Source: an uncultured Acidimicrobiales bacterium
GTDB lineage: Bacteria > Actinomycetota > Acidimicrobiia > Acidimicrobiales > SHLQ01
Assembly (NCBI GenBank): GCA_937934655.1
Contig: CALGZB010000007.1
Span: forward strand, 1 to 43,597
Direction of reading: 5' to 3'
DNA length: 43,597 bases
How positions within the stretch are numbered: position 1 is the first letter of the stretch; each line of letters starts with the position of its first letter. This document shows, piece by piece, positions 9,809 to 43,597 of the stretch. The notes under the pieces are model-generated. The model was not told where the DNA came from, did no database searches, and was given only the letters and a program-made list of their open reading frames with translations. Both the position numbers and the translations under genes were made by a program.

Positions 9809-10239
9809 GATTGGGAAAATCCTTCTGCCGCTGCGGCAATGTCGTCGTCGGAAACTTCGCGTACTTGCGTGGAAACCATCCACCGATGGCCCCACGGGTC
9901 CAACAGCGTCCCGCTGCGAGCGCCATGAAACTGTTCGGTCACCTCGGCCTGCACGGTGGCCCCATTCGCAACGGCGAGGGCCATGGTTGCATCGGCGTCG
10001 GGAACGTCGACGACCGTCGCGGAGGAATGCCCTCCCAATGTCTGGGGTGACAGAACTCCCATATCGGGATACTCATCGGACAGGTAGAGCGATGCGTCGC
10101 CAATCATGAGCGCAGCGTGGCCGACCTTGCCAGAACCATCGACAAATCGGGGGCCGTCTTCGACGGCGCCGAACACCTTGACGTAGAAATCGATCGCGCT
10201 GGCCGAGTCGTTGCACGTGAGATACGGGATAAGGCTCAT
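9805..10239 (-). CDS. VOC/glyoxalase superfamily protein (PhnB-like)
   Basis: Small cytoplasmic protein of 144 residues with the vicinal oxygen chelate fold made of paired beta-alpha-beta3 modules. The start is typical (MSLIPYLTCNDSASAIDFYVKVFGA), and the C-terminal module has the usual GTLLDPWGHRWMV. PhnB-like members are often of unknown activity; some are bleomycin-resistance or dioxygenase homologues. ATG 10239 is chosen because the family starts there; the open frame extends to 10302 but reads into an Arg/Trp-rich non-homologous stretch. Its TGA overlaps the start of the SDR gene by four bases, suggesting a shared, still unidentified pathway. Confidence 0.88.
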   Translation of the reverse strand: MSLIPYLTCNDSASAIDFYVKVFGAVEDGPRFVDGSGKVGHAALMIGDASLYLSDEYPDMGVLSPQTLGGHSSATVVDVPDADATMALAVANGATVQAEVTEQFHGARSGTLLDPWGHRWMVSTQVREVSDDDIAAAAEGFSQS

Positions 10240-10313
10240 TCCGTCAGCATTGCCTGAAGCGGTGGGCAACTCAAGACGCGTCCATCTCGACGTCCATCTC
10301 AACGTAGAGATGG

Positions 10314-11552: not shown

Positions 11553-11578
11553 GCAGAAGCCCCTTGCCAAACTCAATA

Positions 11579-11607
11579 TTTGAGCGTACGCTCAAACATG
11601 TTGAGCG
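11579..11607. promoter_or_regulatory. Palindromic operator with an extra half-site in a divergent promoter
   Basis: TTTGAGCGTACGCTCAAA at 11579-11596 is a perfect 18-bp inverted repeat. The half-site TTGAGCG recurs in direct orientation at 11601-11607, exactly 21 bases after its first copy, about two helical turns. It sits between the DUF4032 and DCC genes. The size and symmetry fit a TetR-type dimer site; no such regulator is encoded in the window. Confidence 0.6.
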
Positions 11608-11651
11608 AGTGTTTAACACTTTCATCCCGACTGAGAGAACACCGAGAAGAT

Positions 11652-12413
11652 ATGACTGCTGCACCAGAAACCACCAAACCCCGTTTCCTCTACGACGACT
11701 GCTGCCCCATGTGCAAGGGATACACCGCAGCGTTCGCAGGCTTGGGGTGGGCGGGCCGAGAAGCCTTCAGAACCATCGACCAAGAAACCTTCAAAGCGCT
11801 CGACTTCGAAAGGGCCCGGCACCAGATCCCACTCGTCGACGGCGCCACCGGCGAAGTTCGCTACGGAATCGATGGCATCCTCGCAGTCGTCGGAGCCGAG
11901 GTACCTGCGCTCAAGCCGATCCTGGCAACCCGCCCGATTCGAGGAGGACTCGAGCGTCTCTACTGGTTCATCACGTACAACCGCCGACACATCGTCACCG
12001 CCCAACCCCCAGCCGAAGGCATCGATTGCGCCCCTGACTACAACCCACGCATGGTCAAGGCGTACCTGGCCTTCACCGGTGTACTCGGAATCGGCCTTGG
12101 GCTCGCTGGCCCCGCTCCTCTCGCACTTGTCGGCATCGCCGCAGCCGGAACGATGCTCATCGCAAACCGACGGGCTGCGTGGAAAATGCCGACACTGCCC
12201 GCCGTCGGACATGTCGCTTCAACGGTCGTTGCGGCGGCCGGAGCCGGAATGGGCGTCACCAACATCACCGGAAACCCTCGATGGGGCACCGCGGCACTCC
12301 TCGCCGTCGGCGCACGCAAACTTTGGCTCCGACGCTGGATGGTAAAAGGCACTGATCCCGAATGGAAACGACGGTGGATTACTAAGCGTCAAGAAGAGCG
12401 AACAGCCCTTTAA
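11652..12413 (+). CDS. DCC-family thiol-disulfide oxidoreductase-like protein (DUF393) with membrane segments
   Basis: Protein of 253 residues. The N-terminal domain (about 1-120) is the DCC/DUF393 family, a thioredoxin-like fold named for its DxxCxxC motif, seen here as YDDCCPMCKGY, followed by FRTIDQETFKALDFE. A hydrophobic region at about 136-170 (LAFTGVLGIGLGLAG...) gives one or two membrane spans, then a further hydrophobic segment near 190-215 and a basic C-terminus. The combination is longer than a simple DCC protein, so it is probably membrane-anchored. ATG 11652 (MTAAPETT) is preferred because GAGAAG precedes it and the frame upstream crosses the palindromic operator. Actual redox activity is not established for this family. 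Confidence 0.82.
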   Translation: MTAAPETTKPRFLYDDCCPMCKGYTAAFAGLGWAGREAFRTIDQETFKALDFERARHQIPLVDGATGEVRYGIDGILAVVGAEVPALKPILATRPIRGGLERLYWFITYNRRHIVTAQPPAEGIDCAPDYNPRMVKAYLAFTGVLGIGLGLAGPAPLALVGIAAAGTMLIANRRAAWKMPTLPAVGHVASTVVAAAGAGMGVTNITGNPRWGTAALLAVGARKLWLRRWMVKGTDPEWKRRWITKRQEERTAL

Positions 12414-12445
12414 AGGTCGTTCTCCAATATGCCGATCATCGAAAC

Positions 12446-23546: not shown

Positions 23547-24842
23547 TTAGGAATTCTTTTTCACTCGAACTGTTCTGGTTGAGCGCACATCGAGCGCCAT
23601 GGCGTCGGCATCTTCGACCTGTTTCTTCAAACGCACGGTGCCGGTCTTTGGGTCATCGACCTCAACGACCTTTTCGAGGAGCTTCACGGTGTCGCCGTTG
23701 CCAGCCTCGTGCGCCAACTGCACTGCTCGACCGAGTTTCATCGTCGCCGTTGCGCCATCGCCGGAATCACGAGCCGCCAGTCCATCGGCAATCGCGTCGG
23801 CCAACTCGGCCTGCCCGGTGTAGTGAGCAACCTCACGGTTGATACGGGTCGACAGCGCTTCGTCGTTGGTCCAGATTGCTCGCACGAGCGCACTTGGTTG
23901 TTCGACACCGTCGATGGTGAGCATGACGCGGGCTCCCAAACGCTCGTCGCCAACATTGCCGACCGGGATGCGAATACGCAGGTGGTAATCACGCGATTCA
24001 TCGCCCGACCACGCACCAAGCGGGTAGTCGTTGGTAAGCGCCTTCACTGGCGCACCCTTGGTGGTGAGATCGTCGATGTTGGGCGCCACCTGTTTGATGA
24101 ACTCGACCTTGGAACCTTGTGGGGTCCAAAGACGGAGCGCCACGGCGCCTACCTCTTTACCCATCGCTGCTTGTGTGAGGGCGCGAAACTCGGCTTCCAT
24201 CTCGGATGGGCTCGGAATGATGTCGACCGTTCCAAGCAACGCGTTGGAAACGCGGCGCAGCTCGTCGACGTTCCAGTCGGTCCCAAGACCACGAGCGTCG
24301 CACTGGAACAGTCCGCTGCAGGCGGCGATGGCATCGTTGAGTGCGCGATCGCTCTCGCTCTGGTTCTTCCCGTCGGTGAGAAGTATGCAGTGGTTTATAG
24401 AGTTGGGAACGTTGTTGAAGATTCCTGCCGCGGCAGAGAGCCATGTCCCGATGGCGGTTCCGCCCTTGGCACGTACCCGTGACACCACCGACTTCGCTGC
24501 TTCGCGAGTGTCGGCAGCAGCGCGAGCCACCGCGCCGGCCTCCTGCGGGTAGAGCGCGTAGGCCCCGTCGACTCCGGCAACGATTGAGAACAGCGTGCCG
24601 TCACTGATGGTGTCGATGGCTGCCATCGTTGCTTCTCGGGCGGCCCGCATTTTGAGCCCACCCTCCTCGTTCATCGATCCGGAACAGTCGATGATGATGA
24701 CCTCGACGCGCTCCTGCCCCGATGGCGGAGCAGCGATACCCGCACCGCCGCCCGACGCGGTGACGGTGATGACTGCGTCGACGACGTCGGCGCCTTCGTT
24801 GAGATACTCGTTCTGGAAAACTTCGGCTCGGAAATCAGTCAC
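23547..24842 (-). CDS. VWA-domain protein of the PknG cluster
   Basis: Protein of 431 residues with a von Willebrand factor A domain at about 46-230. The metal-ion-dependent adhesion site is complete: D52-C-S54-G-S56, Thr in GGTAIG, and Asp in LLTDGKN. The rest is beta-rich with a helical tail; the 300-345 region has RDYHLRIRIPVGNVG. No signal or membrane span is seen, so it is cytoplasmic. VWA proteins of this kind often assemble with AAA+ ATPases or with kinase-phosphatase-FHA sets. Its start overlaps the PP2C stop by eight bases, so it is translationally coupled in the PknG operon. The binding partner is not known; the giant AAA+ protein 12 kb away is one candidate, on inference only. Confidence 0.88.
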   Translation of the reverse strand: MTDFRAEVFQNEYLNEGADVVDAVITVTASGGGAGIAAPPSGQERVEVIIIDCSGSMNEEGGLKMRAAREATMAAIDTISDGTLFSIVAGVDGAYALYPQEAGAVARAAADTREAAKSVVSRVRAKGGTAIGTWLSAAAGIFNNVPNSINHCILLTDGKNQSESDRALNDAIAACSGLFQCDARGLGTDWNVDELRRVSNALLGTVDIIPSPSEMEAEFRALTQAAMGKEVGAVALRLWTPQGSKVEFIKQVAPNIDDLTTKGAPVKALTNDYPLGAWSGDESRDYHLRIRIPVGNVGDERLGARVMLTIDGVEQPSALVRAIWTNDEALSTRINREVAHYTGQAELADAIADGLAARDSGDGATATMKLGRAVQLAHEAGNGDTVKLLEKVVEVDDPKTGTVRLKKQVEDADAMALDVRSTRTVRVKKNS

Positions 24843-26025
24843 TGGTTACGTCCTCTACTTCTGGAGATTCGGGTACTTCTGGAGATTCGGGCACTTCTAG
24901 AGATTCGGGCACTTCTGGAGATTCGGGTTCGGGTTCTTGAGATGCGGGTACTTGCGATTCTGGGCCAGGAATGTCGGCGATGGCCACGGTGGTGTTGTCG
25001 TGGCCGCCCGAATCGAGGGCAAAGCGCACAAGGTTCTGCGCCAGTGCGAGCAACGAGTCGCCCTTCTGCGCCTCGAGTTGGGCGGTCATCGCTTCATCGG
25101 TATCGGCGTAGTTCCATAACCCATCGCTGCAAAGCAGCAACCGGCCCGAGGTGTCTCTTCCTTCAGAGCTTCCTTCAGGGCTGGCTTCAGGGCTGGCATC
25201 AGGATTGTTCGTAGGAAGGTGGTGCACGGCGATTCCTGGCTCGAGCTCGTGGGCGTCATCGCCAAGCCAACGAGTAATGGTGTGAGCGCGACGATCGGCA
25301 TTCGCCTCTTCGGCCGTCATCAACCCATCGGCTACCTGCTCATACGCCCACGAATGATCGGTGGTGAGCTGGCTCGCGACACCCAAACCGTCGATCCAAT
25401 AGGCCCGGCTGTCGCCAAGCCAACCAACCGTGATCTGAACGCCGGTGTCGGTGACTCGGGAGATCGATGCCACAAAGGTGCACGAGGGCGACCCCTTGCC
25501 GCCGACGACCTGCGGCACCTGAAGGGCCGCATCCTGGCCAGCTCGCACGGCTGCCTGCATTGCAGCAACATCACCGGCGCCGTCGACACCACCATCGATC
25601 TCGGCGCTGCTTTTGAGTGACTCGACCAACGCGTCGAGCGCCGCCGTCGTTGCGACGAGCGACGCCTGCTCGGGGTTGTCGGTGGTCGACACGCCGTCGC
25701 ACACCACCATCGCCGAGTTTGATCCGACCTGGGCGACCGCCCCGAAGTCTTCGTTGCGATGATGCCGCTTGCCGCGGTCGGTCACCATCACTATCCAACC
25801 CTGGTCATCTTCAAGATGGTCACGAATGTCGGGTTGTTTGTGGCCACAACTCCCGCAGTAGCCATCGGCGGCGATATCGGTACTCGGCGCCGCGCAACTG
25901 ACGCACGGGTCACTTGAGGCGTGGGATAGCGCCGTGTCGGCGGCACCGTCGAGGTCGGCGCCGCAGGCTTCGCACCAATCTCCCTCACTCGCCGGTTCGG
26001 CGCATGCCGGACAAACCTGCGCCAT
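24835..26025 (-). CDS. PP2C-family Ser/Thr protein phosphatase with zinc ribbons
   Basis: Protein of 396 residues that removes phosphate from Ser/Thr residues with two metal ions. Two N-terminal zinc ribbons (C5/C8 with C18/C21; C41/C44 with C57/C60) resemble those of the kinase and FHA proteins. The PP2C domain (about 78-350) has RNED at 90-93, VVCDGVS at 108-114, WLGDSRAYW, LLCSDGLW and GGHDNTT. The last 30 or so residues are a repetitive acidic Ser-Pro-Glu tail (PESPEVPE...). It should reverse PknG phosphorylation. Its start shares one base with the PknG stop (TGATG), and its end overlaps the VWA gene by eight bases. Confidence 0.93.
   Translation of the reverse strand: MAQVCPACAEPASEGDWCEACGADLDGAADTALSHASSDPCVSCAAPSTDIAADGYCGSCGHKQPDIRDHLEDDQGWIVMVTDRGKRHHRNEDFGAVAQVGSNSAMVVCDGVSTTDNPEQASLVATTAALDALVESLKSSAEIDGGVDGAGDVAAMQAAVRAGQDAALQVPQVVGGKGSPSCTFVASISRVTDTGVQITVGWLGDSRAYWIDGLGVASQLTTDHSWAYEQVADGLMTAEEANADRRAHTITRWLGDDAHELEPGIAVHHLPTNNPDASPEASPEGSSEGRDTSGRLLLCSDGLWNYADTDEAMTAQLEAQKGDSLLALAQNLVRFALDSGGHDNTTVAIADIPGPESQVPASQEPEPESPEVPESLEVPESPEVPESPEVEDVTSD
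24857..24928 (-). repeat. 18-base tandem repeat coding the PP2C acidic tail
   Basis: Four units of 18 bases (ACTTCTGGAGATTCGGG plus T or C) encode a six-residue ESPEVP-type unit near the C-terminus of the phosphatase. One unit differs by a single base inside the core. The frame is kept, so length variation would not disrupt the protein. Confidence 0.88.
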
Positions 26026-28493
26026 CAGACGAGGCTCTTCGGGCGTACAAGGTTGGCCTTGTCGACCAGAGCAAACCGTTCGGCATCGGTAGGAGCCATT
26101 CGGGCCTGATCGCGGTAGACCGACTCGAGCTTTGACCGAAGATCAACCTCGGTGAGTCCGCCTCCAAACAGCTTCTTCGAGGCATCGGGGGCAAGAGTGC
26201 CAGCACCCATTGCCGCAAGCGCCCGCTCCAAGACTTCGGCGGCAAGACGCGACCGCTCGGACGCATCGATCTGTAGTTGATCGATGGTTTGCGCGGCGGC
26301 TTCGAGTTCGGCCGACGATGGCGCATCGGTGCTTCGAGCACCAGCCAACGTGCGGGCCGACTCGACTTGTGCGCCGGCAAAAGCGGCCGAGCTCGGCGGC
26401 ACTTGACGATACGCCGCAACTGCGCCGGCACGGTCGCCTTGGGCCGCACGGCAGCGAGCCAGACCAAACGGTGCGGAGACATACGTCGAGTCAACCGACG
26501 CAGCGAGTTCGTACAGCTTTGCTGCCCGGCCAAATTCTCCCGCCCGTTCAGCAGCGATAGCAACTGCCACCTTCGGCGCAACCTCGCCGGGGATTTCGGT
26601 CCAGACCTTGCTGAACATCTCGGCGGCGCCCTGCGGGTCGCCGGTCTCGAGCTTGAGGAGTCCTCGGTACCAATTGATGCGCCAATCCCAGGGGTCTGCC
26701 GCCTCGATCTGATCAAGGTTGGCGCCGACATGGGTCGTTGCATCGCCGCCGCCTTCGAGCATTGCGGCAATAGACCGCAAGCGGACCTCTCGAGTGTCGG
26801 GCAGCGAGCCACCCTTCAGACCATCGCTGATGAGTTCCAGTGCCCGGGTGGACTCGACATCTTCAATGCCGAGAAGGAACGCTGCCGCCGGATCGGCAGG
26901 GTCGATCTTGGGATGAGGCAGCACCCGCCAGTCGGCGGTGTCGACAAGCGCATTGTCGTCGGCGTCGATGAGCAACGTTGCCAAGCGGTCGCCCTCAAAA
27001 AGTTCACTCGGCACCGGGCGTGGGCTGCGTTGGCTGACCGCGACGATTTCGCGCAGCACACCGGTGAGCTGAAGAGCCGTCTCACCGGCGTCCTGGAACC
27101 GGTCGTCGGGGTGGTGGGCGGTGGCTTTGAGAAGGAAGCGGTAGAGCGATTCCCACTGCGCAAACACCGGCACCTCGCCGGGGGTAGGAAGGGTGTGCTC
27201 GTAGGTTCCCTTATGGAACACAAAGTCGAGGATCATCACCGCAAGGGTTCGACCCACGGTGAACAGGTCGGAGGATACCGAAGGGCCCATGGTGGCGATC
27301 TCGGGAGCTTGAAACCCTCGGGTGCCGAAGATTGCGGCATCATTGTCGTCAATCTGCATCACTCCGCCCACGTCGATGAGCTTCACGCCGTCGCCAACAC
27401 TCATGACGTTGGCGGGCTTGAGGTCGTTGTAGACCAGTCCTGACTCGTGCAGATAACCAAGCGCCGGGAGGATTCCCAGGATGTAGGCGATTGCGTCGGT
27501 GACCGGGAGCGGATCGGGTACGCCACCATTGGCCTTGCGGCGGTCCTTGAGCTTCGAGTTGAGCGACTCGCCACCGACGTACTCCATCACGATGTAGCCA
27601 GCGCCTGCGTGAGTAACAAAGTTGTAGATATTGACAATGCTGCCGTGCTCGATACGAGCGAGGAACTGCCGCTCGGCCACCGCTGAAGCAGCGGCATCTT
27701 CGTCATCGGAGTTCAGGAGGCCCTTCAGTACAACCCAACGATCGGACACCGCTTTGTCCTTACCGAGATAGATCCAGCCCATTCCACCGTGGGCAAGTGC
27801 GCCGAGGATCTCGTACTGGCCGCCCACAAGATCGCCGCTTTTTAGCTTGGGAGCGTTGGTCGTGAAGTCGAAAGGAGTGCGGCAGTTTCCGCAGAATCCC
27901 TGCACCCGGCCGGGGCGAGTGTCGGAGGTTCGCCCGACCTCATTGCCGCAACTGGTGCACACGCGTTTTTCTTCCGGGACAACACCCAGAACGCTCTGGA
28001 TCTTCTCGGCCGACATGAGCGCGGCGGCCGGATCGCCTTCGGGTGTTGGCGGCACGGTGACAAGCCCGAGCCCAAGTCGCTGGCGCGAAATACCGGTTCG
28101 ACGGGTGCTTGCCGTGCGGCGGGTCGAAGTTGGGCCCGTGCGTTGCGACGAAGTTCCGGGGGCAGTAGGCGCAGCGATCGAAGAGCCCGCGAAGGTTCCC
28201 GACGTTGGCGGCGCTGCAGGAGAGCTGGCAGTGCTTCCGGCGATGCCGCAGGTGTTGCAGTACCCGTCGGCCTCAATGGCCCCGGTGCATCCAGCCTGGG
28301 AACATGAGGCTCCGGCGACAGGCGGGGCGGCAACGGCTGGGGCAACTGCTTGCGCTTGGGGTGAAGCCGATTGGGCTGACGGCGGCGGGGATGAGGGTGC
28401 CGCACTGGCGGGTGCTTTTGCTCCGCAGGTGTCGCAGTACCCATCGCTGGCAAAGGCGCCGGTGCACCCGGCGGTAACGCTGCATGAGCTCAT
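26025..28493 (-). CDS. pknG: PknG-type Ser/Thr protein kinase with zinc ribbons and TPR domain
   Basis: Cytoplasmic kinase of 822 residues. Two zinc ribbons (C4/C10/C20/C23 and C64/C69/C79/C82) precede a Pro/Ser/Thr linker. The rubredoxin-like element typical of PknG (C179/C182 with C201/C204) follows, then the kinase domain: P-loop AHGGMGWIYL at 234-243, K257, the VYNDLKP loop with D357 and the unusual LIDVGG at 372-377. A TPR-rich half (about 480-822) ends in LVDKANLVRP, as in Mycobacterium PknG. In mycobacteria PknG phosphorylates GarA and tunes glutamate metabolism. The extra N-terminal ribbons are not in mycobacterial PknG. The 418-residue helical protein gene upstream overlaps its start by four bases; the mycobacterial glutamate-binding lipoprotein gene is not present. 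Confidence 0.95.
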   Translation of the reverse strand: MSSCSVTAGCTGAFASDGYCDTCGAKAPASAAPSSPPPSAQSASPQAQAVAPAVAAPPVAGASCSQAGCTGAIEADGYCNTCGIAGSTASSPAAPPTSGTFAGSSIAAPTAPGTSSQRTGPTSTRRTASTRRTGISRQRLGLGLVTVPPTPEGDPAAALMSAEKIQSVLGVVPEEKRVCTSCGNEVGRTSDTRPGRVQGFCGNCRTPFDFTTNAPKLKSGDLVGGQYEILGALAHGGMGWIYLGKDKAVSDRWVVLKGLLNSDDEDAAASAVAERQFLARIEHGSIVNIYNFVTHAGAGYIVMEYVGGESLNSKLKDRRKANGGVPDPLPVTDAIAYILGILPALGYLHESGLVYNDLKPANVMSVGDGVKLIDVGGVMQIDDNDAAIFGTRGFQAPEIATMGPSVSSDLFTVGRTLAVMILDFVFHKGTYEHTLPTPGEVPVFAQWESLYRFLLKATAHHPDDRFQDAGETALQLTGVLREIVAVSQRSPRPVPSELFEGDRLATLLIDADDNALVDTADWRVLPHPKIDPADPAAAFLLGIEDVESTRALELISDGLKGGSLPDTREVRLRSIAAMLEGGGDATTHVGANLDQIEAADPWDWRINWYRGLLKLETGDPQGAAEMFSKVWTEIPGEVAPKVAVAIAAERAGEFGRAAKLYELAASVDSTYVSAPFGLARCRAAQGDRAGAVAAYRQVPPSSAAFAGAQVESARTLAGARSTDAPSSAELEAAAQTIDQLQIDASERSRLAAEVLERALAAMGAGTLAPDASKKLFGGGLTEVDLRSKLESVYRDQARMAPTDAERFALVDKANLVRPKSLV

Positions 28494-29746
28494 GAGGCTG
28501 CTCCTGGTGAGTTGGTGATGCCTGGTAGTCGCATTGCGTTACCAAAGGCCGAGACCAACATGTTGGCCCGGTCGAGATCGGTGGGCGAAGTGAAGAGTTC
28601 GTTGTGCGCATCGTCGTGCAGATCGGAGAGCGTTGGATCCTCGGCTCGACCGAGCGCTGCGGCCTTCGCCCAGTAGGCAGCGAGCAGTCCGCGCAGTTCG
28701 CTTCGTTGGCGGAGTGGCGCCGCGTTTATGTCGTAGGCGCGGGTGAGTTGTTCGCGAAACGCCACCACTTTGGCCATCCACTCGTCGAGCTTCTGACGTT
28801 TCTGTTGCCAGTCGCCATCGGCAGCCCGAAGCTCATCGGCCATCGCTGCGAGTCCTTTGTCGCCATCGATGATGGCCACATCAGGAGTACGGATAAGGCC
28901 TTCGACGTTCACGATCTTCGACGTCGATTGGGTATGCGCAGTGGCAGCTTGGTTTCGCAATATCCGTAGCTCGGCGAGATGCGCCTCGGATTCGGCGATA
29001 TCGCCATCGAGCTGGTCATAGCCTCGGGCAATCGCAGCCATCTGATGCGCAGCATCGGCGACCAGAACATCGAGGTCGGAGGCGTAGTTGGCACTGAGCG
29101 ACATTGGATCCTCGGCAAGTGCCGATTTCACGTCACGGAGTCTTGTGTGCAGCGCATTGACCGTCGGCTCGGAAAGGCCAAGGCGGTTTGCGTCTTTCTG
29201 AAGCCGCTGGAGAGTGGTTTCGGCGCTCGAGGTCCGGGGCACCACCTCGGTCCACACCTGGTCGACCATGGCAACCGCATCGCGGATTGGTTCATAAACC
29301 GAGCGCATATTGCTGAGGAGCTGATCGATTGTGCCGCGAACATCGTTGCTGCCGCTATCGAGGAGATCGCGCTGGGTCACGCCTCGATCGTCGACGTGCA
29401 ACAGGATTGACGAACCAGTAAGGAGGTCGGTGAGCCGTCGCCGGCGCTCGGTGTTCATCCGACCGTCGTCACGAATATCGCGGACATCGTTGAGCGTCAC
29501 CCGAAGTTGGGCGAGCCAACGCCAGAGCTCCGGCGCCTGTTCCATCGCTGGCCCAACGGTTGCGAGGGTGGTTCCACGGAGTCCGCCGGCACTGAGAATC
29601 TTGTAGGTGGGATGCTCATCAAGTTCGAGCAAATTCGCCGCGATACGCGCTTCGGCCGCACCGTAGCGAGTGAGAAGTTCGTCGATCTGTTCGGCTTGCA
29701 GCAACCGGAAGGTCCTCGGTAATTCGTGGTTCCGAACATCGTACAA
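28490..29746 (-). CDS. Unrecognised alpha-helical protein at the head of the PknG operon
   Basis: Protein of 418 residues with no signal sequence and no membrane span. It is strongly helical with long amphipathic and coiled-coil-like stretches (about 160-310), a short Leu/Ala-rich C-terminal helix (RGLLAAYWAKAAALGRAEDP) and a Gly/Ala/Pro tail. I do not recognise a family. Position is the best clue: it is the first gene of the operon with PknG, PP2C, VWA and FHA, and its stop overlaps the pknG start by four bases. In mycobacteria the corresponding position holds GlnX, a membrane sensor; this protein lacks membrane segments, so it is not simply GlnX. Scaffold or regulator of PknG is a reasonable inference. 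Confidence 0.8.
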   Translation of the reverse strand: MYDVRNHELPRTFRLLQAEQIDELLTRYGAAEARIAANLLELDEHPTYKILSAGGLRGTTLATVGPAMEQAPELWRWLAQLRVTLNDVRDIRDDGRMNTERRRRLTDLLTGSSILLHVDDRGVTQRDLLDSGSNDVRGTIDQLLSNMRSVYEPIRDAVAMVDQVWTEVVPRTSSAETTLQRLQKDANRLGLSEPTVNALHTRLRDVKSALAEDPMSLSANYASDLDVLVADAAHQMAAIARGYDQLDGDIAESEAHLAELRILRNQAATAHTQSTSKIVNVEGLIRTPDVAIIDGDKGLAAMADELRAADGDWQQKRQKLDEWMAKVVAFREQLTRAYDINAAPLRQRSELRGLLAAYWAKAAALGRAEDPTLSDLHDDAHNELFTSPTDLDRANMLVSAFGNAMRLPGITNSPGAAS

Positions 29747-34587: not shown

Positions 34588-35508
34588 CTAGTTCTTGCCC
34601 CATCGAGCACGCAAGCGCTTCTTGGAGTCGTCGGCCTCTGAAGGCGGAATCATCGACTCGTCGAACCCAGTTGGCGGAGGCGGAAGATGCTCGTAGGAAG
34701 GGCTGGCCGGAGGCAACGCGCCCGAGTAATGCTCGCGACTCGTGGCGGTAATGACATCTCGTTCGTCGGATACTTCGCTGAAGCCAGTTTCGTGAAGCGG
34801 CGCATTGCGGAAGAACGAATCGGCATGCTTCGAGAGGTTACGGATCATCGTGAAGTTGGCACCGCCGCCGATAACCGCACCGACACCGAACGGCAGGAGT
34901 CGACCCACCGTGGCGATACCCCGGCGCGTCCCGTACTTGGTGAGCACATGGGTACCAAGCGAACCATTGACCCGTTCGATCACCTCGAGCGGCATCCGCA
35001 TGCCCTCGACGCCTGCCGGATTCATGTTCATCTTGTTCACCAGTGAGGTGAATTCGACGGCCGCTTCATCGCCAAAGGCCAAGATTGAAAGCACCCAAGC
35101 ACGTCGCTGATCCGGGGTTGCATTGGTATGACCGTGAACAGCGGCGATGGTCATGATGAGGTCGGTTGAACGAAGCGCCAGCCAGGCCACATCGGCGCTG
35201 AGCCAGCTCGCTGCAGCCGCAGTGCCGAGGCCCGGAGTGGCCGCCGCTGCGCCAGTAGCGGCACCCGCTCCAGTGAGCTCTTTTTGAAACGACTTGTAGA
35301 TCTCGGCGAGCCGCTGCTCCCGAGTTCCTTGGGTCTCTGCCGCCCGGTCGAGGGCACGTTGCCAACGTTTGCTAACCGCCTTGTCGACCCCCTCAACCAT
35401 TGCCCTACCCAATGCATCGAGCACGGGCTGGGGAATCATGTCGGGGCTCAGCCCCTTCTTGGCGGCCTTCTTCGCAGCTTTGTTGACGAGCCGTTTTCGA
35501 ATAGCCAT
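34588..35508 (-). CDS. EcsC-family protein
   Basis: Protein of 306 residues. The N-terminal basic region (KRLVNKAAKKAAKKG) is followed by the EcsC family core (about 70-240). Its hydrophobic Gly-rich segments (TGAAAATPGLGTAAAASWLSA and PFGVGAVIGGGANF) suggest membrane insertion or association. EcsC was first named in the Bacillus Ecs transporter locus, and its function is unclear. The C-terminal tail is Pro/Asp-rich. It is the last gene of the minus-strand SPFH-AAA-AIM24-EcsC set, 76 bases after the AIM24 gene. Confidence 0.88.
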   Translation of the reverse strand: MAIRKRLVNKAAKKAAKKGLSPDMIPQPVLDALGRAMVEGVDKAVSKRWQRALDRAAETQGTREQRLAEIYKSFQKELTGAGAATGAAAATPGLGTAAAASWLSADVAWLALRSTDLIMTIAAVHGHTNATPDQRRAWVLSILAFGDEAAVEFTSLVNKMNMNPAGVEGMRMPLEVIERVNGSLGTHVLTKYGTRRGIATVGRLLPFGVGAVIGGGANFTMIRNLSKHADSFFRNAPLHETGFSEVSDERDVITATSREHYSGALPPASPSYEHLPPPPTGFDESMIPPSEADDSKKRLRARWGKN

Positions 35509-35584
35509 GGCTTACAAACTAACGGCGCCGGCCCAGATTCTTGTGGCGCGCCGCGATGGCAGGCTTGTGGCCCGCCACCTGGGG

Positions 35585-36307
35585 CTAGCCCGAAAGCGCT
35601 CCGAGAAGTCCGCCTGATCCGCCGCCGCCCGTAGGTGTGGGGCGACCCTCCGACGGTTGGACAAGGATGAAACCCTGGCCTTGGAAATCCATCTGGAAAG
35701 TTTCGCCGGATCCGCCACGAGCCATCGACTTGAGGCCGCCGGTGCTGTCGGTCTTGAGGTTCATCTGCACGCCGGCACTCCACATGACCACGGCTTGTGG
35801 GTCGCCGAAGGTGGTGCCGCCAGAGACGTCGAGCATGACGGGAGGCCCATCGGTGGTGATCGCCACGTAGCCGGTGCCGGTAAGGGTGACGTTGAAGAGA
35901 CCGCCAGCCATCGCTCCGGCCATTCCGCCGCCGAGGCTCTTGATGTCCCACTCGATAGAACTGGAGAATGCGAGGACGTTGGAGCCGTTGACCGAGATCT
36001 GGTCGTTCTCGAGGTACATGACCTGAATGTCGTGCGCTTCGTTGGCGAGGAATACTTCGCCGGTGCCGCCGACGTGCATCATGTTTACGCCCTCGCCGGT
36101 GGCGACCTTTTTGAGCAGTTTGCCCATTCCGCCCGAACCCTTGTTCTCAAAGGTCGCAGCGCCTTGGTAGGCCACCATCGAACCGGTAGCGGCTTCGACC
36201 GGGCCATAGGCCAGGGTTACCCGCAAGAGCTTCTTGTTCTGCAACTGGAACTGCTGTTCGCCAACCGGAATCTCTCCGTATTGGGCAAGCTCGCTGTGAA
36301 TAGGCAT
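35585..36307 (-). CDS. AIM24-family protein
   Basis: Beta-rich protein of 240 residues of the AIM24 family (a TRAP-like/TerD-neighbour fold found from bacteria to mitochondria). It has Gly-rich strands and loops with FENKGSGGMGKLLKKVATGEG, then MMHVGGTGEVFLAN and GGLFNVTLTGTGYVAI. The C-terminus is Gly-rich (TGGGGSGGLLGALSG). ATG 36307 (MPIHSELAQYGE) is chosen: the open frame runs to 36571 but the extra 88 residues overlap the end of the AAA+ gene and are Arg-rich out-of-frame sequence. It sits in the operon with the AAA+ ATPase and EcsC. Confidence 0.88.
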   Translation of the reverse strand: MPIHSELAQYGEIPVGEQQFQLQNKKLLRVTLAYGPVEAATGSMVAYQGAATFENKGSGGMGKLLKKVATGEGVNMMHVGGTGEVFLANEAHDIQVMYLENDQISVNGSNVLAFSSSIEWDIKSLGGGMAGAMAGGLFNVTLTGTGYVAITTDGPPVMLDVSGGTTFGDPQAVVMWSAGVQMNLKTDSTGGLKSMARGGSGETFQMDFQGQGFILVQPSEGRPTPTGGGGSGGLLGALSG

Positions 36308-36395
36308 CGTGTGGTCTCGCTTCTGTCCGCCACCCGCGTGGCGACCGTAGTAGTCGTCCGCCCGGCCATCCCGCGACGGCCAAGATGCCTTTACC

Positions 36396-39300
36396 TTAAT
36401 CGGCAGGTGGCGGTGGCGGAGGTGGAGGCGGCGGGTTTTCCGATTGCGCCGGAGTTCGGCGGTTGCTGGTGCGGTCACGATAGATCGCTTGGCGCGCTGC
36501 GCGGCTGACCTCGTCGGCCTTGATGAGCTTTCGAAGCGTCTCATCGAAGAGCGCCATTGCCTCGGCGGCATCGGGGCCGCGGTTCTCGCTGAGCGCTCGC
36601 AACTGTTCGCTGATTCCGCTGACTGCTCCGGCTACCCGAACCATCGGGTCATCGTCGGAGCCACCCATGAGCTTCATGCGACGGAATGAGTTCTTGATCT
36701 CTTCCCACCGCTCGGCGTCTTCGCCATCGAGTACACCGCGCAGTTCACGAAGCTTGAGCAAGTTGGATTCGGCGCCGGTGGTGAGGGTTTGGGCTTCGCC
36801 CACGTAGTGATCGTCGAGCAGCGCTTCGAGCTCGTCGTCGTTCATGACCGGCAGAACCTTTTCGGCGAGCCGGTTCATGTTTCGATACGAACCCTGCAAT
36901 TGGAACCTTGGCTCGGTGCGGAATTCATCTTCCTGCGACGCCGAGCTGATGTACGTCTGGTTCACGGCAAGCAACACTTGCTGCACACGGATCAGCCGTC
37001 GGAATGTAGCGACAAGCTCGTCGATCTCAACCTTCGAATAGGGATGTGCGAGGTCATCGGGCGATACCGCTTCGCCCTTCGCCATCGCGATGAGCTTGAG
37101 CGTGTCGCCGGGGTCGCGGGTAGTGAGCGATGCGAGTACCGGGTTCGAGGTGAGCGAGTTTTCGAGATAGCTCAGCGCAAACTGCTGATCGTTGCCGGTG
37201 AGAACGTCGCCAAGGTTGTAGGTGTCGGCACGGTTGGCGAGCATGTCGGGTATCTGGAAACGCTCGCCCGACTCGGTGTACGGGTTACCGGCCATAACCA
37301 CGGCGAAACGCTTGCCTCGGAGGTCGTAGGTTTGGGTTCGCCCGTTCCATACGCCTTCCATGCGACGCTGCGCATCGGACATCGAGATGAACTTCTGCAA
37401 GAGCTCGGGGTTCGTGTGCTGAATATCATCGAGGTAGAGCAGCACGTTGCTGCCCATTTCGAGAGCGAAGTTGATCTTGTCGACCTCTTGGGCAGCGGTG
37501 GCATTGGGCGCTTCGGTGGGGTCGAGCGAGTCGACACCATGACCAAGCGCCGGACCGTTGATCTTGACGAACACCATGCCCAAACGGTTGGCCACGTATT
37601 CCATCAGCGTGGTCTTGCCGTAGCCCGGAGGCGAGATGAGCAGAAGTAGACCCATCTGGTCGGTGCGGCCGCCTTCGATGGTGCCGAGCTGTTTGGCCAG
37701 GTTGTCGCCGATGAAGGGGAGGTACACCTGATCGATGAGCTGGTTTCGCACGAAGGCGCTCATGACCTTCGGCGTGAACTCGTCGAGGCGCAACCGGTGG
37801 CGAGTAGCCGTCAGTAGTTCGTGTCGTTGAGATTGGTAGGCACGAAACCCGGGGACCACCGTGCGACGGAAGACGTCGCCTTCAGCCAGGAGTTGGTCGT
37901 AGCGGAAGCCCAGCGTCTGGTTGGTGATTCGGTTGTGCTGGCTGAGCAGTCCGGTGACTTCGCAGCGCAGGTCGACGGCTCCGGCCTGATGCGGCAGGTC
38001 GGCGGCCACCATGAGGGCCACGGCCTCGGGCACGTACGCAAGGGCCTCGGGCTGTTGTGCCGTGGCGAAGGCGGTGAACCAGGCCGAAAGGAGGCGGGTT
38101 CGGTCGCTGAGTCCTTCGAGTTCGGCGAGTGAGCTCCCGACGGTGTCGTGATGAAGAAGAAGTGCGTCGCGAAGGTTGGAGGCGGCGCTGCTTACGACGA
38201 AGGCAAGCGGCTCTTCGGCGAGCTCTTCAAAAAGATAGGTAGCAACCGCAACCAGGTCGTCGCCGACCCCAAGCGATTCCGCTAGTGCGGGGTTGGCTGC
38301 GGTGAACAGCGCGATGTGGTCGGTAAGGGTTGCGATGAAGTCGGCGATGGCAGGAGAGTTGGCGAAGGTAGAGCGAAGACGCCCCAGGCTGACGCCACTC
38401 GCCAGAAGTTCGGCTTGTTTCGCCTCGTCGAGTCCGTGGGCCCAAAAGACTTGGGCGAGCGCCCGGGTGTGCGGTTCGAAACGTAGAAGGGCAACCTCGT
38501 CCCAACGGTTGATGAGCACGCCGAGGATGAGCGCCGCATCGTGATCGTGCACGCCGCGGTCGTACCCCTCATCGACCCGACCTTCGGCAGCCGAACGAAC
38601 GAGCGCTTCAAGGCTCGCTGGACTACCGGCTGCCTCACGGAGTGCCGTCATCGTGAGGTCGGTGCCCCCGTGCGCAGCGTCGTTAAGAAGCGACGTTGCG
38701 AGAAACTCGATGCGGCTGAAATCGTTGCGCTCGGAGACCAAGCTTTGATCCCAGAAGGGGCGCAGATCGTCAAGATTGCTCTCGCCGAGAGCTGACTCTC
38801 CAAGGGCTTGGACCGAGACGATCTCTTTGAAGTCGGTTCCGGTGATGACGACGTGAAGTTCGCCGTCGATAACAGCAGTGGTGAGTTCGAGTCGCTGCGA
38901 GTCGACGCTGAAGCGGTGGCGACCGAGCCGGATGACCTGGCCGCCGTCTTCGAAGATGTCGGTCCGGTCTCGGAGCGAGCGAGCGGATTCTTCTTTGGCC
39001 GTTTCGAGTGTTCGGAGTACCTCGTCGGCCCGAACCTGCTCGTCGAGTCCGCGAAGGTCTTCGGCGATCGACCGGACCTTGGCGACCAGCGGGTCGCTGA
39101 CAAAGAAGGCATTGATTTCGTCGGGCGATTCGAAGCCCTCGATGCGGCGGTTGAGGCTGGTAAGGATTCGATCGGATGCGTCGACCAAACGGCGAGCCGC
39201 ACGTTGACGGTCGTCGATGAGGCTCTGCTTACGCGAGGAAAACGCCTCGTAAATGTCTTCTCGTTTTGTAGCGATCTGATCGAGGTAGTCGTCGGACTCG

Positions 39301-41588
39301 CCGAATCGACTCTCGAGGTTTTCGAGCTGCACGAGAAGCGTGCCGAGGGCAGCGTCGGCGCGCTCAGGCGTTGAAGCCCGAGACAGCTCCGCGGTGACCG
39401 ACTGAGAGAACAGTCCGAACTCGACACCGAATGCAGCGCTGCTTTCTGAATCGTTGAGGGTACGGCGTTGATTCTCGGCGACTGCGCGGGTGCGGTTGAG
39501 CGAGCCCATGACGTCGGAGACACGTTCGAAGATGCTGGTTCGTACCGTGGCGTCGTCGATGTCGAGGCCACCGACGACTTCGGTGAGAAGGTCGAGGCCC
39601 TCGCCGATGTCGTCCAGTGATTCGAGATGCGGCTGGAGATCAGTGACTTTTTCGGTCGACTCGATGGTACTGGTGAGCGACGCAACGTCGGTATGGAAAC
39701 CTTCGAAGGCGGCGTCGTCGGCCAGGAACTCGACCGCTTGACTCGACTGAGTATCGAAAGCCTCCTGCAGTGCCCCGTCGAGTTCATCGAGGGCTGCGTC
39801 ATCGACGTAGCGAACGTCGCGAAGGGTTAGAACATGGCCCTGCTTACGCCGGAGCTGCTGGAGCGCATCGACGAATTCTCGGGTGCTGCTCGGACGCTTG
39901 GCGCGGAGTCCGTCGACGAGCGTGCGGATCTCGGTTCGAGATTCGGTCACCACATCGAGGGCCGTCGCCTTGAGTGATTCGGCCTTCTCGAACTCGTCGA
40001 TGATCAGTTCAGAGGTGGCACGGATTTCGCCGAGAGGCGCTGCGAGGTCGCCGGCTGCGTCGTCGGCTAGCCAGGCATACGCGTCGAGAACGCGAACGGT
40101 CGAGGTAGAGAGGGCTTCGAAGACCGCGGCCGATGGTTCGACGTCGGCGACGAGTCGTTTGATGTTGAGCGACTCGCTGACGCCTCGGACCGCTTCGGCG
40201 TTACCGATGCGTTCGAGGAACCCGTCGCCCAAAGGTTGACGGGCATGAAAATCGTCGCTGACAAACGGCGTAGCCCAGATCTGCATGGGGTGCACTCGGG
40301 TTGGCTCGCCGTCCTCGCGAAACACCACGAGGGTGCCGTTCTCGAAGATGCTGTAACCGTGACAGTTGATCGGTGGAGCAACCTCGCGACGAATCAGGTT
40401 GTAGCTCAGCAGGATCGTGCGACCCTCGGAGCGTTGGTGAAACGCGTAGAGCACGTCTTCGCCGTTGGGCGACCGGCGTTCCGCCTTGAACTCCATCGAG
40501 GATGTGTCGAGGTCAAAGACTTTGGTGTCGCCCTCGCGGAGGTAGTAGCCACCGGGAAAGATGAGCCCGTGGTCTTCGGGGAGGATCTGGCACGACTGGC
40601 CAATGGCGTCGGCTCGAAGCGCCGACCGGTTGAACAGGTTCACCACGTAGAAGCGATCGTGGTCTTCGAGGTAAGGCCGGACCCGCAGCAACACCAAGTC
40701 GCCGACGATCGCGTAGTCCATCGACGTATCGGCGACCGACTGGTCGGCATTGTCGACCGACTCGGCCAGCACCACCGAACCGGTTTCGGTGTTGTCTTCA
40801 AGGCGAATCTCGAGGGCGCCACCCTCTGGGTACACAAAGACCCGGTCGTCGAGGTTCACGTGAGGCTCAACGCCGCCAACATGATGCGAGCGGGTTACCG
40901 GAATCCACTCGAACCCAAACTGGGGTGGATAGATGTGGTCGCGTTCGCCGCGGTTGTCGAGGTATCGGGCGCCTCCATCAGGCGTGACTTCCCAACGGAA
41001 GACGCGAATGTCGCTTACCGAGTTTCCGATTTGAAACGCAGCCAGCATGCGCCCCTCAGTGCGACGTAGCTGGAGGAGCTTGTTGTCCTTGTAATAGCGG
41101 GTAAGTTCGCTGAAGTCGCTGAGAAACGATGGGTCGTGAAGCCACGCTGTCGCCGACCCGTCGGCAGCCTCGGACAGGGGCGACAGCGAGAATGACTCTT
41201 CGGATTGATCGAGCCGATGCAGCGTAAAGACGTCATCGATGGTGGTCTCGGATTTAAGTCCGAGAAACACGTTGTAGCCAAACAGCATCTGATCGCCGAC
41301 CGACACGATGTCGCGAGCGACGCAGTTGTTTTCGGTACGAATCCGTTCGCTGCCAACCAACTCGAAGCGGCTAGTCCCGAACGTTTCGAGTCGTTGGTCA
41401 TTGAGTCGCGAGGCGCGACTTCCAAGCTCGTCGGCGTGTTCGAGAAGGCGCGAGCGAAGAAGCTCGTACGTCCCTGCGCCCGCGGTATCGGCAACCGCGG
41501 AAGCTGTTTCGGCGGTTGGGTCAGCGCCGGAAGGAGTCCCGGAAGCTCCACCGGAAGTATTGGGTGTTTCTGGTTCGGTCGTAGTCAC
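36396..41588 (-). CDS. Giant DUF3686-AAA+ ATPase
   Basis: Protein of 1730 residues. After an Ala/Thr/Pro-rich leader, a beta-rich region (about 45-480) has repeated strand motifs (GYNVFLGLK, LLQLRRTEGRMLAAFQIG, DRFYVVNLF). It matches the type of N-terminal region described as DUF3686, often annotated as a DNA-repair ATPase part, though that role is unproven. A long helical/coiled-coil region (about 500-1200) follows. A single AAA+ module lies at about 1290-1560: Walker A ISPPGYGKTTL near 1323, Walker B LLYLDDIQ near 1384, and sensor-like VVMAGNPYTESGERF near 1432. The C-terminus is a run of Pro residues. It has no membrane segment. It lies 37 bases after the flotillin-like gene. Confidence 0.88.
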   Translation of the reverse strand: MTTTEPETPNTSGGASGTPSGADPTAETASAVADTAGAGTYELLRSRLLEHADELGSRASRLNDQRLETFGTSRFELVGSERIRTENNCVARDIVSVGDQMLFGYNVFLGLKSETTIDDVFTLHRLDQSEESFSLSPLSEAADGSATAWLHDPSFLSDFSELTRYYKDNKLLQLRRTEGRMLAAFQIGNSVSDIRVFRWEVTPDGGARYLDNRGERDHIYPPQFGFEWIPVTRSHHVGGVEPHVNLDDRVFVYPEGGALEIRLEDNTETGSVVLAESVDNADQSVADTSMDYAIVGDLVLLRVRPYLEDHDRFYVVNLFNRSALRADAIGQSCQILPEDHGLIFPGGYYLREGDTKVFDLDTSSMEFKAERRSPNGEDVLYAFHQRSEGRTILLSYNLIRREVAPPINCHGYSIFENGTLVVFREDGEPTRVHPMQIWATPFVSDDFHARQPLGDGFLERIGNAEAVRGVSESLNIKRLVADVEPSAAVFEALSTSTVRVLDAYAWLADDAAGDLAAPLGEIRATSELIIDEFEKAESLKATALDVVTESRTEIRTLVDGLRAKRPSSTREFVDALQQLRRKQGHVLTLRDVRYVDDAALDELDGALQEAFDTQSSQAVEFLADDAAFEGFHTDVASLTSTIESTEKVTDLQPHLESLDDIGEGLDLLTEVVGGLDIDDATVRTSIFERVSDVMGSLNRTRAVAENQRRTLNDSESSAAFGVEFGLFSQSVTAELSRASTPERADAALGTLLVQLENLESRFGESDDYLDQIATKREDIYEAFSSRKQSLIDDRQRAARRLVDASDRILTSLNRRIEGFESPDEINAFFVSDPLVAKVRSIAEDLRGLDEQVRADEVLRTLETAKEESARSLRDRTDIFEDGGQVIRLGRHRFSVDSQRLELTTAVIDGELHVVITGTDFKEIVSVQALGESALGESNLDDLRPFWDQSLVSERNDFSRIEFLATSLLNDAAHGGTDLTMTALREAAGSPASLEALVRSAAEGRVDEGYDRGVHDHDAALILGVLINRWDEVALLRFEPHTRALAQVFWAHGLDEAKQAELLASGVSLGRLRSTFANSPAIADFIATLTDHIALFTAANPALAESLGVGDDLVAVATYLFEELAEEPLAFVVSSAASNLRDALLLHHDTVGSSLAELEGLSDRTRLLSAWFTAFATAQQPEALAYVPEAVALMVAADLPHQAGAVDLRCEVTGLLSQHNRITNQTLGFRYDQLLAEGDVFRRTVVPGFRAYQSQRHELLTATRHRLRLDEFTPKVMSAFVRNQLIDQVYLPFIGDNLAKQLGTIEGGRTDQMGLLLLISPPGYGKTTLMEYVANRLGMVFVKINGPALGHGVDSLDPTEAPNATAAQEVDKINFALEMGSNVLLYLDDIQHTNPELLQKFISMSDAQRRMEGVWNGRTQTYDLRGKRFAVVMAGNPYTESGERFQIPDMLANRADTYNLGDVLTGNDQQFALSYLENSLTSNPVLASLTTRDPGDTLKLIAMAKGEAVSPDDLAHPYSKVEIDELVATFRRLIRVQQVLLAVNQTYISSASQEDEFRTEPRFQLQGSYRNMNRLAEKVLPVMNDDELEALLDDHYVGEAQTLTTGAESNLLKLRELRGVLDGEDAERWEEIKNSFRRMKLMGGSDDDPMVRVAGAVSGISEQLRALSENRGPDAAEAMALFDETLRKLIKADEVSRAARQAIYRDRTSNRRTPAQSENPPPPPPPPPPAD

Positions 41589-41625
41589 AGGTGCGACTCG
41601 TCAGACGTGATTCGCGGCCGGTGAC

Positions 41626-43597
41626 CTACAGGTCTCCGATCGGCAGGTCGCCGATGCCTTCTTTGGAAACCGCGTCGATGATGTTGCCGAGCTTGCTCTT
41701 CATCTCACCATCGGAGTTCTTCATTGCATTCGCGAGGAATGCCGAGATCGTGAGGTCGCGTACTCCGGCGCCGCCGAGGCCCGCCGTAAGTTCGGTTAGG
41801 TCGGCCACAACGTCGCCGTCTCCGTCGAGGTACTTGCCGAACAACTTGCTGGTGGTGCCAGAGTTCTCGACGAACGCATCGACCGACTTTCCGCCGGCAA
41901 CGGCGCCGACGAGGCGATCGATGAAGATATCCGAGCCACCGACGATGTCGATGTCGGCGCTTTCGAGACCGGCTTTGAGGGCATCGGCTTGAGCGTTGGC
42001 GATATCGATCTGCGCATCGACCTTGGCCAGGTCGACCTCTTTCTGGGCGTCGAGGCGACGGGTGAACTCTTCGAACTCTTGACCCACGCCTTCGAGTTCG
42101 CGCATTGCGGCTGCCTTGTCGGTGAGACCGGCAGCTTCGCCACGGAGGATGGCTTCGGAAGCTTGGGCTTCGGCGAGGCCCATGTCGCGGACGACAGCAG
42201 CGTCGGCGGCGCCTTCCTTTTGAGTGGCTCCGGCGTCGGCTTCGCGCACGCGAACCTCGGCAAGGCCGACCTTTTCAATGGCGATGGCATCGGCTTCGCG
42301 CACGGTGACCTCGGCAAGGCCCTTTGCGGCTGCTTCGGCTTGGGTACCTTCGGCCAGGCGAACCATGGCTTTGGCGTCGAGATCGCTGGCTTCGAGGTCG
42401 GCCCGCGAGATGGTGACTCGTTCGGTGGCCTTGTGCTGAGCGGCCTTCTCGGCGGCTTCGGCGGCCTTGATGTCTTTGACGAAGGCGCCTTCGGCTTCTG
42501 CCTCGGCTTCGATGACCGTGGCGTCACGGTTTCGGTTGGCGTCTTCGACAACCCGGAGGGTCAGGATGGCTTCTTCTTCTTCGGCCACGGTCTTTTCGAC
42601 GGCAGTCCGTTTGGCAACGATTTCGGCGATCTCGGTCTTTTCGAGCTCGAGCCCCTTGGTTGCACCAACGGTTTCGAGTTCGCGAGCGATGATTTCAAGG
42701 TCACGTGCTTTGGTGATGCGCTCTTCTTCAACAGCAACGACCCGCAGGCGGTTGCGTTCGGCGACTTCGACCTCACGCATGAGGTTCTCCTGCTGCACAC
42801 CGACATCCTGTTCGGTAGCGAGACGTGCGGTCTCGGATCGAAGAAGTTCCTCGGCGGCAACCTTTGCGGTCTCGGCCTGTTCACGAGCACGGACGGTCTG
42901 AATCTCGCGGGACTGGCGAGCCTCGGCATCGGCCTGCTGACGCTGGAGTTCGAGCACGGCTTCGCGTGTCTCAACGTCTTTCTGGGTGATCTGCTTCTCT
43001 TCTTCCCGGGTGGCGACGTTGGTGGCCACATGTTCGAGAGCGGTGAGTTCGGTGATCTTCCGGATGCCCTGGGCATCGAGGATGTTGGTGTCGTCGAGGC
43101 TCGAGAGTGGTGTCTGTTCGAGGTAGTCGATAGCAGCATCTTCGAGCACGTAACCGTTGAGGTCGGTACCAATGACCTCGATGATCTCGTCACGGAATCG
43201 ACGACGCTCGGTGTAAAGGTCGATGAAGTCGAGGCGCTTACCCACGGTCTTGAGCGCTTCGGAGAACTTGGCCGTGAAGAGCTCTTCGAGCGTCTCTTGC
43301 TGGCTGGCCCGGTCGACACCAATGGCCTGGGCCACCTTGATGACGTCTTCTTCCGCGTTGTTTACCCGCACAAAGAAGTTGACCTTGATGTCGGCACGGA
43401 TGTTGTCGCGACAGATCAGGCCTTCGGTAGCGCGCCGGTCGATCTCGATGGTCTTGACCGAGGTATCCATGATCTCGGCTTTGTGGATGACCGGCAACAC
43501 AAGCTTTCCGGTAAACGAAACGACGACGTCGTTCATGGTGCTCACAACGAGCGCCTTACCCTGTGGAACCTTTCGGAACAGGCTGCTGAACAGCGCT
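41626..43597 (-). CDS. Flotillin-like SPFH protein, N-terminus cut by the right window edge
   Basis: The frame runs without stop to the right edge, and 656 residues are visible. The first residues are FRKVPQGKALVVSTMNDVV, typical of the start of the SPFH domain in flotillins, so the true start and the likely N-terminal membrane anchor lie beyond 43597; the GTG at 43545 is probably internal. The SPFH domain occupies about the first 200 visible residues. A very long helical stalk (about 190-520) is made of Glu/Ala-rich heptads, with four repeats of a VREADA-type motif. A C-terminal globular part (about 530-656) follows. Flotillins form large membrane assemblies. It is the first gene visible in the operon with the giant AAA+ protein. 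Confidence 0.9.
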   Translation of the reverse strand, partial: ALFSSLFRKVPQGKALVVSTMNDVVVSFTGKLVLPVIHKAEIMDTSVKTIEIDRRATEGLICRDNIRADIKVNFFVRVNNAEEDVIKVAQAIGVDRASQQETLEELFTAKFSEALKTVGKRLDFIDLYTERRRFRDEIIEVIGTDLNGYVLEDAAIDYLEQTPLSSLDDTNILDAQGIRKITELTALEHVATNVATREEEKQITQKDVETREAVLELQRQQADAEARQSREIQTVRAREQAETAKVAAEELLRSETARLATEQDVGVQQENLMREVEVAERNRLRVVAVEEERITKARDLEIIARELETVGATKGLELEKTEIAEIVAKRTAVEKTVAEEEEAILTLRVVEDANRNRDATVIEAEAEAEGAFVKDIKAAEAAEKAAQHKATERVTISRADLEASDLDAKAMVRLAEGTQAEAAAKGLAEVTVREADAIAIEKVGLAEVRVREADAGATQKEGAADAAVVRDMGLAEAQASEAILRGEAAGLTDKAAAMRELEGVGQEFEEFTRRLDAQKEVDLAKVDAQIDIANAQADALKAGLESADIDIVGGSDIFIDRLVGAVAGGKSVDAFVENSGTTSKLFGKYLDGDGDVVADLTELTAGLGGAGVRDLTISAFLANAMKNSDGEMKSKLGNIIDAVSKEGIGDLPIGDL

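What the first reader, a model, noticed from the sequence alone, without database searches (positions are those of the whole stretch)
34588..43597. Flotillin - giant AAA+ - AIM24 - EcsC operon: a candidate membrane-associated ATPase system
Four minus-strand genes are separated by only 37, 88 and 76 bases: an SPFH/flotillin scaffold, a 1730-residue DUF3686-AAA+ ATPase, an AIM24 protein and an EcsC protein. Each is known as a family, but none has an agreed function. Together they combine a membrane scaffold, an energy-driven remodeller and two membrane-associated factors. This looks like a defined module for stress, envelope repair or biological conflict; that role is inference.
Basis: partly seen in the sequence, partly recalled or inferred. 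Interest (0 to 1): 0.75.

Follow-up and report, generated by a model that had tools for sequence, protein, structure and literature searches.

The report
Flotillin–giant ATPase membrane-stress gene cassette
The window holds a real flotillin plus giant ATPase gene pair that belongs, with a third membrane gene lost off the end of the contig, to an already described but experimentally untested bacterial membrane-stress cassette; the two extra genes beside it (AIM24 and EcsC) are neighbours found together with it only in this one genus.

Summary
The four genes are real, with the stated spacing. The "four-gene module" is two units joined in one genus.

Unit 1 is a cassette: YqiJ-like 3-TM protein – SPFH/flotillin – giant AAA+ (DUF3686, helical arms, MoxR/NorQ-like AAA+). 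The window is a whole contig that ends inside the flotillin gene. The missing 22 residues and the YqiJ-like gene lie on contig C82, which overlaps the window end by exactly 141 bases. The flotillin precedes the AAA+ gene in 39 of 40 loci with room, and YqiJ precedes the flotillin in 34 of 36. In 397 phylum genomes the same 9 carry both, and none carries one alone. In other phyla the cassette extends to PspA and CesT/Tir (YjfI) genes and occurs on plasmids. Ravi et al. 2024 (PMC11237479) already described this arrangement.

Unit 2 is AIM24–EcsC. It adjoins unit 1 only in three species of this genus. A fourth keeps AIM24–EcsC at the same place without the cassette (an empty site).

Envelope stress is the favoured role for the core, by published gene-context inference. 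A defined role for all four genes together is not supported. The database name "DNA repair ATPase" has no support here: DUF3686 is predicted to be a beta-propeller.

The parts
41626..43597 (-). SPFH/flotillin (YqiK-like): N-terminal TM, SPFH domain, long coiled coil, conserved C-terminal 'IVGG' region; 5' end cut by the contig end (22 residues missing, on contig C82)
   Evidence: full-length 678 aa from the 141-base exact overlap of two contigs of the same genome
36396..41588 (-). Giant AAA+ protein, 1730 aa: DUF3686 (residues 54-504; predicted beta-propeller-type fold), long helical region with DUF7902, second helical region, C-terminal MoxR/NorQ-like AAA+ (Walker A 1319-1327, Walker B 1383-1391, sensor-1 N1435, Arg 1453)
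35585..36307 (-). AIM24-family protein, 240 aa; resident neighbour, not part of the conserved cassette
   Evidence: (1pg6, E 6.2e-7)
34588..35508 (-). EcsC-family protein, 306 aa; resident neighbour, paired with AIM24 in this genus only
   Evidence: PADLOC PDC-S29 profile E 1.1e-17
43457..43597 (.). 141 bases identical to the end of contig C82 (assembly join); the YqiJ-like 3-TM gene (G000:C82:13012-13623) lies just beyond and is the first gene of the cassette

Best explanation
The locus is an abbreviated YqiJ-SPFH-AAA+ membrane-remodelling cassette of the kind described by Ravi et al. 2024 next to PspA operons. In this genus it sits directly upstream of an older AIM24-EcsC gene pair. Proposed mechanism (inferred): the YqiJ-like 3-TM protein and the single-TM flotillin build an oligomeric SPFH cage or scaffold on the membrane. 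The giant cytosolic AAA+ protein docks there through its beta-propeller and long helical arms. Its MoxR/NorQ-like ring then uses ATP to remodel or assemble membrane-bound complexes, possibly PspA polymers encoded elsewhere, when the envelope is stressed. This would be analogous to HflKC-FtsH but without a protease. Shown here: gene order, strict co-occurrence, co-divergence, domain folds by prediction, conserved ATPase motifs, plasmid carriage. Inferred: docking, substrate, stress role.
For: The flotillin lies upstream of the AAA+ gene on the same strand in 39 of 40 loci with room, in several phyla, and a YqiJ-like gene lies upstream of the flotillin in 34 of 36 (window). In 397 phylum genomes the AAA+ and this flotillin occur in exactly the same 9; in the family, in the same 8 of 19. 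Distance matrices of flotillin and AAA+ correlate at r = 0.97, and each with YqiJ at 0.86-0.90, with no Mantel permutation reaching the observed value. Walker A K1325, Walker B D1387/D1388 and sensor-1 N1435 are invariant in 39 proteins. The DUF3686 model (pLDDT 90) matches many beta-propeller proteins; the C-terminal domain matches NorQ, CbbQ and RuvB best. Elsewhere the same triad follows YjfI/DUF2170 or CesT/Tir and PspA genes (L036, L047, pQBR103, a Hymenobacter plasmid). Ravi et al. describe this arrangement and its abbreviated form. The own genome has one PspA elsewhere. AIM24-EcsC stands at the same site without the cassette in congener G400, which branches first in the genus (support 88), pointing to later gain.
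Against: No experiment on this protein set was found. Deletion of the P. aeruginosa SPFH gene of a related operon (PaFlo3) gave only about 20% less biofilm (PMC13086221). The Walker B acidic pair is DD, not the usual DE, so ATP hydrolysis is not certain. Seven of the 9 phylum genomes belong to one genus, so the number of independent events is small. The TM-scores of the propeller matches are low, as expected for a multi-domain query, so the exact propeller type is open.
Confidence: 0.72

Rival explanations
1. AIM24 and EcsC are functional parts of one five-gene operon with the cassette, for example lipid-organising and membrane-bound accessory factors recruited by the flotillin scaffold.
For: Same strand and mostly short gaps (88 and 76 bases in the window) in all three congeners that carry the cassette; no promoter-like or minus-strand terminator-like site in the gaps (a weak test in this GC-rich genome). 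Yeast Aim24 acts in inner-membrane organisation (PMC3975624).
Against: Adjacency is limited to one genus; across 73 downstream neighbour proteins in many taxa only the two congeners supply AIM24 or EcsC. In G400 the AIM24-EcsC pair occupies the same site with no cassette. Most genomes of the family have AIM24 and EcsC without the cassette, and outside the genus on separate contigs.
Confidence: 0.13
2. The giant AAA+ is a DNA-repair enzyme, as the Pfam and RefSeq name 'ATPase involved in DNA repair' says.
For: Database names; weak AAA-domain similarity to RuvB in sequence and fold.
Against: Similarity to RuvB is confined to the general AAA+ core; the best fold matches are NorQ and CbbQ as much as RuvB. 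DUF3686 looks like a beta-propeller. The conserved partners are membrane proteins, not DNA-repair genes.
Confidence: 0.05
3. The locus is an anti-phage or biological-conflict system.
For: Patchy distribution (9 of 397 in the phylum), plasmid carriage, and an EcsC match to the PADLOC candidate family PDC-S29, E 1.1e-17.
Against: No PADLOC match to the flotillin or YqiJ and only trivial AAA-core matches for the ATPase; no relative in the viral-contig collection; neighbours are not defence genes; EcsC itself is a widespread single-copy gene of the family.
Confidence: 0.1

Closest known systems
PspA-associated band-7 / YqiJ / AAA+ operons (Ravi et al. 2024, mSystems, PMC11237479)
   Same: [quoted passage not shown] YqiJ/YuaF-like 3-TM protein; AAA+ with N-terminal beta-propeller and coiled coil. 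The paper also names the abbreviated form without PspA.
   Different: In the window the CesT/Tir-PspA dyad is absent from the locus, and an AIM24-EcsC pair follows.
Escherichia coli yqiJ-yqiK
   Same: YqiJ-like gene directly upstream of a flotillin; profile matches at 95% and 99.8% probability.
   Different: E. coli has no DUF3686 AAA+ gene beside it.
Pseudomonas aeruginosa bacABCDEF operon (PMC10948618; PaFlo3 in PMC13086221)
   Same: YjfI - PspA - short NfeD - SPFH order, co-transcribed by RT-PCR.
   Different: The identity of bacE and bacF was not given in the passages read, so presence of the AAA+ gene there is untested.
HflK/HflC-FtsH (SPFH cage plus AAA+)
   Same: SPFH membrane scaffold paired with an AAA+ machine.
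   Different: The window AAA+ is MoxR/NorQ-like, has no peptidase domain and no TM segment.

Membership tests
YqiJ-SPFH-AAA+ cassette (Ravi et al. 2024) | SPFH/flotillin protein with N-terminal TM and long coiled coil | tested here: met
YqiJ-SPFH-AAA+ cassette (Ravi et al. 2024) | YqiJ/YuaF-like 3-TM protein encoded directly upstream | tested here: met
   On contig C82, joined by a 141-base identical overlap; YqiJ_N and E. coli YqiJ matches
YqiJ-SPFH-AAA+ cassette (Ravi et al. 2024) | AAA+ ATPase with N-terminal beta-propeller and coiled coil, next to the flotillin | tested here: met
Full PspA-type operon | CesT/Tir (YjfI/DUF2170)-PspA dyad in the same operon | tested here: not met
   None near the window cassette; one PspA elsewhere in the genome
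MoxR-type AAA+ | Closest fold to NorQ/CbbQ with conserved Walker A, Walker B, sensor 1 and Arg finger | tested here: met
   the Walker B second acid is D, not E; RuvB scores nearly as well
MoxR-type AAA+ | VWA-domain partner protein encoded beside it | tested here: not met
   The only VWA gene seen is about 12 kb away in the PknG cluster
DNA-repair ATPase | DNA-processing domain or DNA-repair gene partners | tested here: not met
HflKC-FtsH type | AAA+ fused to a metalloprotease domain | tested here: not met

The most novel reading that the evidence does not exclude
In this genus AIM24 and EcsC have been recruited into the SPFH-AAA+ cassette, giving a bacterial counterpart of mitochondrial inner-membrane organisation, where SPFH scaffolds (prohibitins), AAA+ machines and Aim24 also act on the same membrane.
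Probability: 0.1. Interest if true: 0.6.

Novelty: new member of a known kind. Interest (0 to 1): 0.36.

Why it matters
The core is one of the few SPFH–AAA+ gene pairs outside HflKC–FtsH and prohibitin–m-AAA, and the two genes never occur apart in the 397 phylum and 19 family genomes searched. It occurs on plasmids in several phyla and no experimental work on it was found. The correction is useful in itself: database entries name the protein 'DNA repair ATPase' although it looks like a membrane-docked MoxR-type remodeller. The empty site in a congener gives a natural comparison of genomes with and without the cassette.

Tried and rejected
Longest-ORF gene calls in high-GC loci gave opposite-strand shadow genes; they were replaced by a codon-model caller and six-frame HMM checks. 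Breakpoints of the empty site could not be placed to the base because the intergenic DNA is too diverged. The idea that AIM24–EcsC is a general partner of flotillin cassettes was rejected. DNA repair, anti-phage defence and a phage origin were considered and found weak. A VWA partner, as in NorQD, was looked for and not found next to the cassette. Papers naming DUF3686, or joining AIM24 with EcsC or flotillin in this sense, were not found. The PucR-type regulator and sulfotransferase genes upstream in Streptomyces and Actinomadura loci are lineage-specific neighbours.

Full report
What is in the window. EcsC and AIM24 match their Pfam families, and the 1730-residue protein matches DUF3686, DUF7902 and AAA_5. 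The flotillin has no Pfam hit on its own. In an alignment of 36 homologues, 9 members hit Band_7, and the profile aligns with E. coli YqiK at 99.8% probability. AIM24's true start is probably at MPIHS (window 36307). AIM24 and EcsC show no transmembrane segment by a simple hydropathy scan, whereas the flotillin has one N-terminal segment.

The contig end hides a gene. The window is all of contig C7 and stops inside the flotillin gene. A search of the same genome with the YqiJ-like protein of a sister species found one match, on contig C82. The last 141 bases of C82 equal the end of C7, and the join restores a 678-residue flotillin that starts MSILIGIGVV. So the probable order is YqiJ-like – flotillin – AAA+ – AIM24 – EcsC, the order seen unbroken in the two congeners L017 and L018. 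The YqiJ identity rests on two members that hit YqiJ_N, a 95% profile match to E. coli YqiJ, and the same position as in E. coli yqiJ–yqiK.

The conserved unit. Thirty-one loci with a relative of the AAA+ protein came from one scan of GTDB genomes, and further ones from whole-genome searches. They lie in Acidimicrobiales, Streptomyces, Actinomadura, Lentzea, Acidobacteria, Gammaproteobacteria, a deltaproteobacterium and a bacteroidete. After removing duplicates, the flotillin lies upstream of the AAA+ gene on the same strand in 39 of 40 loci with room, including the window. The exception is L023, and in L036 and L047 a small gene lies between the two. The YqiJ-like gene lies upstream of the flotillin in 34 of 36; it was not found in L059 and L063 (window). 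The AAA+ and this flotillin occur in exactly the same 9 of 397 phylum genomes (Fisher p 1.6e-18) and the same 8 of 19 family genomes. These counts are not independent events: 7 of the 9 are one genus. Flotillin and AAA+ distances correlate at r = 0.97.

What travels with it. In Proteobacteria and Bacteroidota the triad follows YjfI/DUF2170 or CesT/Tir, PspA and, in one case, a TelA-like gene. A tblastn of plasmid records found 12 carriers. Some are chromosome-sized records, but pQBR103, pDEGR-1, a Hymenobacter plasmid and Streptomyces plasmids are plasmid-sized. pQBR103 carries YjfI–PspA–rhomboid–DUF2491–DUF350–DUF1190–glutathionylspermidine synthase, then a 217-residue hypothetical protein in the YqiJ position, the SPFH gene and the AAA+ gene. 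The Hymenobacter plasmid carries CesT/Tir–PspA–DUF1449–flotillin-sized protein–AAA+. The viral-contig scan found no relative.

AIM24 and EcsC. Among 73 downstream neighbour proteins only the two closest congeners supply AIM24 and EcsC. In the family, AIM24 and EcsC are each single-copy in 16 of 19 genomes, far more than the 8 with the cassette, and outside this genus they lie on separate contigs. In the order, AIM24 occurs in 58 of 99 genomes and EcsC in 8 of 99, side by side only in this genus. In congener G400, AIM24–EcsC stands directly beside the gene that flanks YqiJ in the window genome, with no cassette between, and G400 lacks both cassette genes elsewhere in its assembly. A tree of shared proteins puts G400 as the first branch of the genus with support 88, so the cassette was probably gained next to an existing AIM24–EcsC pair. 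The breakpoints are too diverged to map.

How it probably works. AlphaFold2 models are confident (mean pLDDT 90 and 86). The DUF3686 region matches many beta-propeller proteins. The C-terminal domain matches NorQ, CbbQ and RuvB, which places it nearest to MoxR-type remodellers. Walker A, the DD of Walker B and sensor-1 N are invariant in 39 proteins. The best reading is an SPFH scaffold that recruits a cytosolic AAA+ remodeller to the membrane, in a PspA-type envelope-stress setting. The docking, the substrate and the stress signal are inference.

Comparison with what is known. Ravi et al. 2024 (PMC11237479, section 19) describe this operon type, including the abbreviated flotillin–YqiJ–AAA+ form, and suggest it works with PspA encoded elsewhere; the window genome has such a PspA. 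The P. aeruginosa bac operon has the YjfI–PspA–NfeD–SPFH order and is co-transcribed (PMC10948618; PMC13086221). The window is therefore a new member of a known kind. The AIM24–EcsC neighbourhood is a genus-level variant with no evidence yet of shared function.

Noticed in passing
window 23547-29746 (-): Cluster of a coiled-coil protein, PknG-type kinase (rubredoxin + kinase + TPR), PP2C phosphatase and a VWA-domain protein, in tight succession.
   Followed up: partly
G000:C82:6353-8217 (locus L108): PspC-domain sensor histidine kinase and LuxR-type response regulator a few genes upstream of the YqiJ-like gene, present in all four congeners including the one without the cassette: an envelope-stress-type two-component system.
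   Followed up: partly
window 34588-35508 (-): The EcsC protein matches the PADLOC candidate defence family PDC-S29 at E 1.1e-17, although EcsC is a common single-copy gene in this family.
   Followed up: partly
L111 (pQBR103) 1019-14223: A ten-gene block joining YjfI-PspA, rhomboid, DUF2491, DUF350, DUF1190 and glutathionylspermidine synthase to the YqiJ-position gene, SPFH and AAA+ genes on a large Pseudomonas plasmid.
   Followed up: no
window 36396-41588 (-), residues 1387-1388: Walker B of the AAA+ is DD instead of DE in all 39 homologues.
   Followed up: no
L060, L061 (genome G183): Two cassette copies in one genome with split or shortened flotillin genes (an internal TAG in one), so the cassettes may be decaying there.
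   Followed up: no
L062:15535-15990: TerB-family gene two genes upstream of the cassette in an actinomycete, a further hint of a Ter-type stress link.
   Followed up: no
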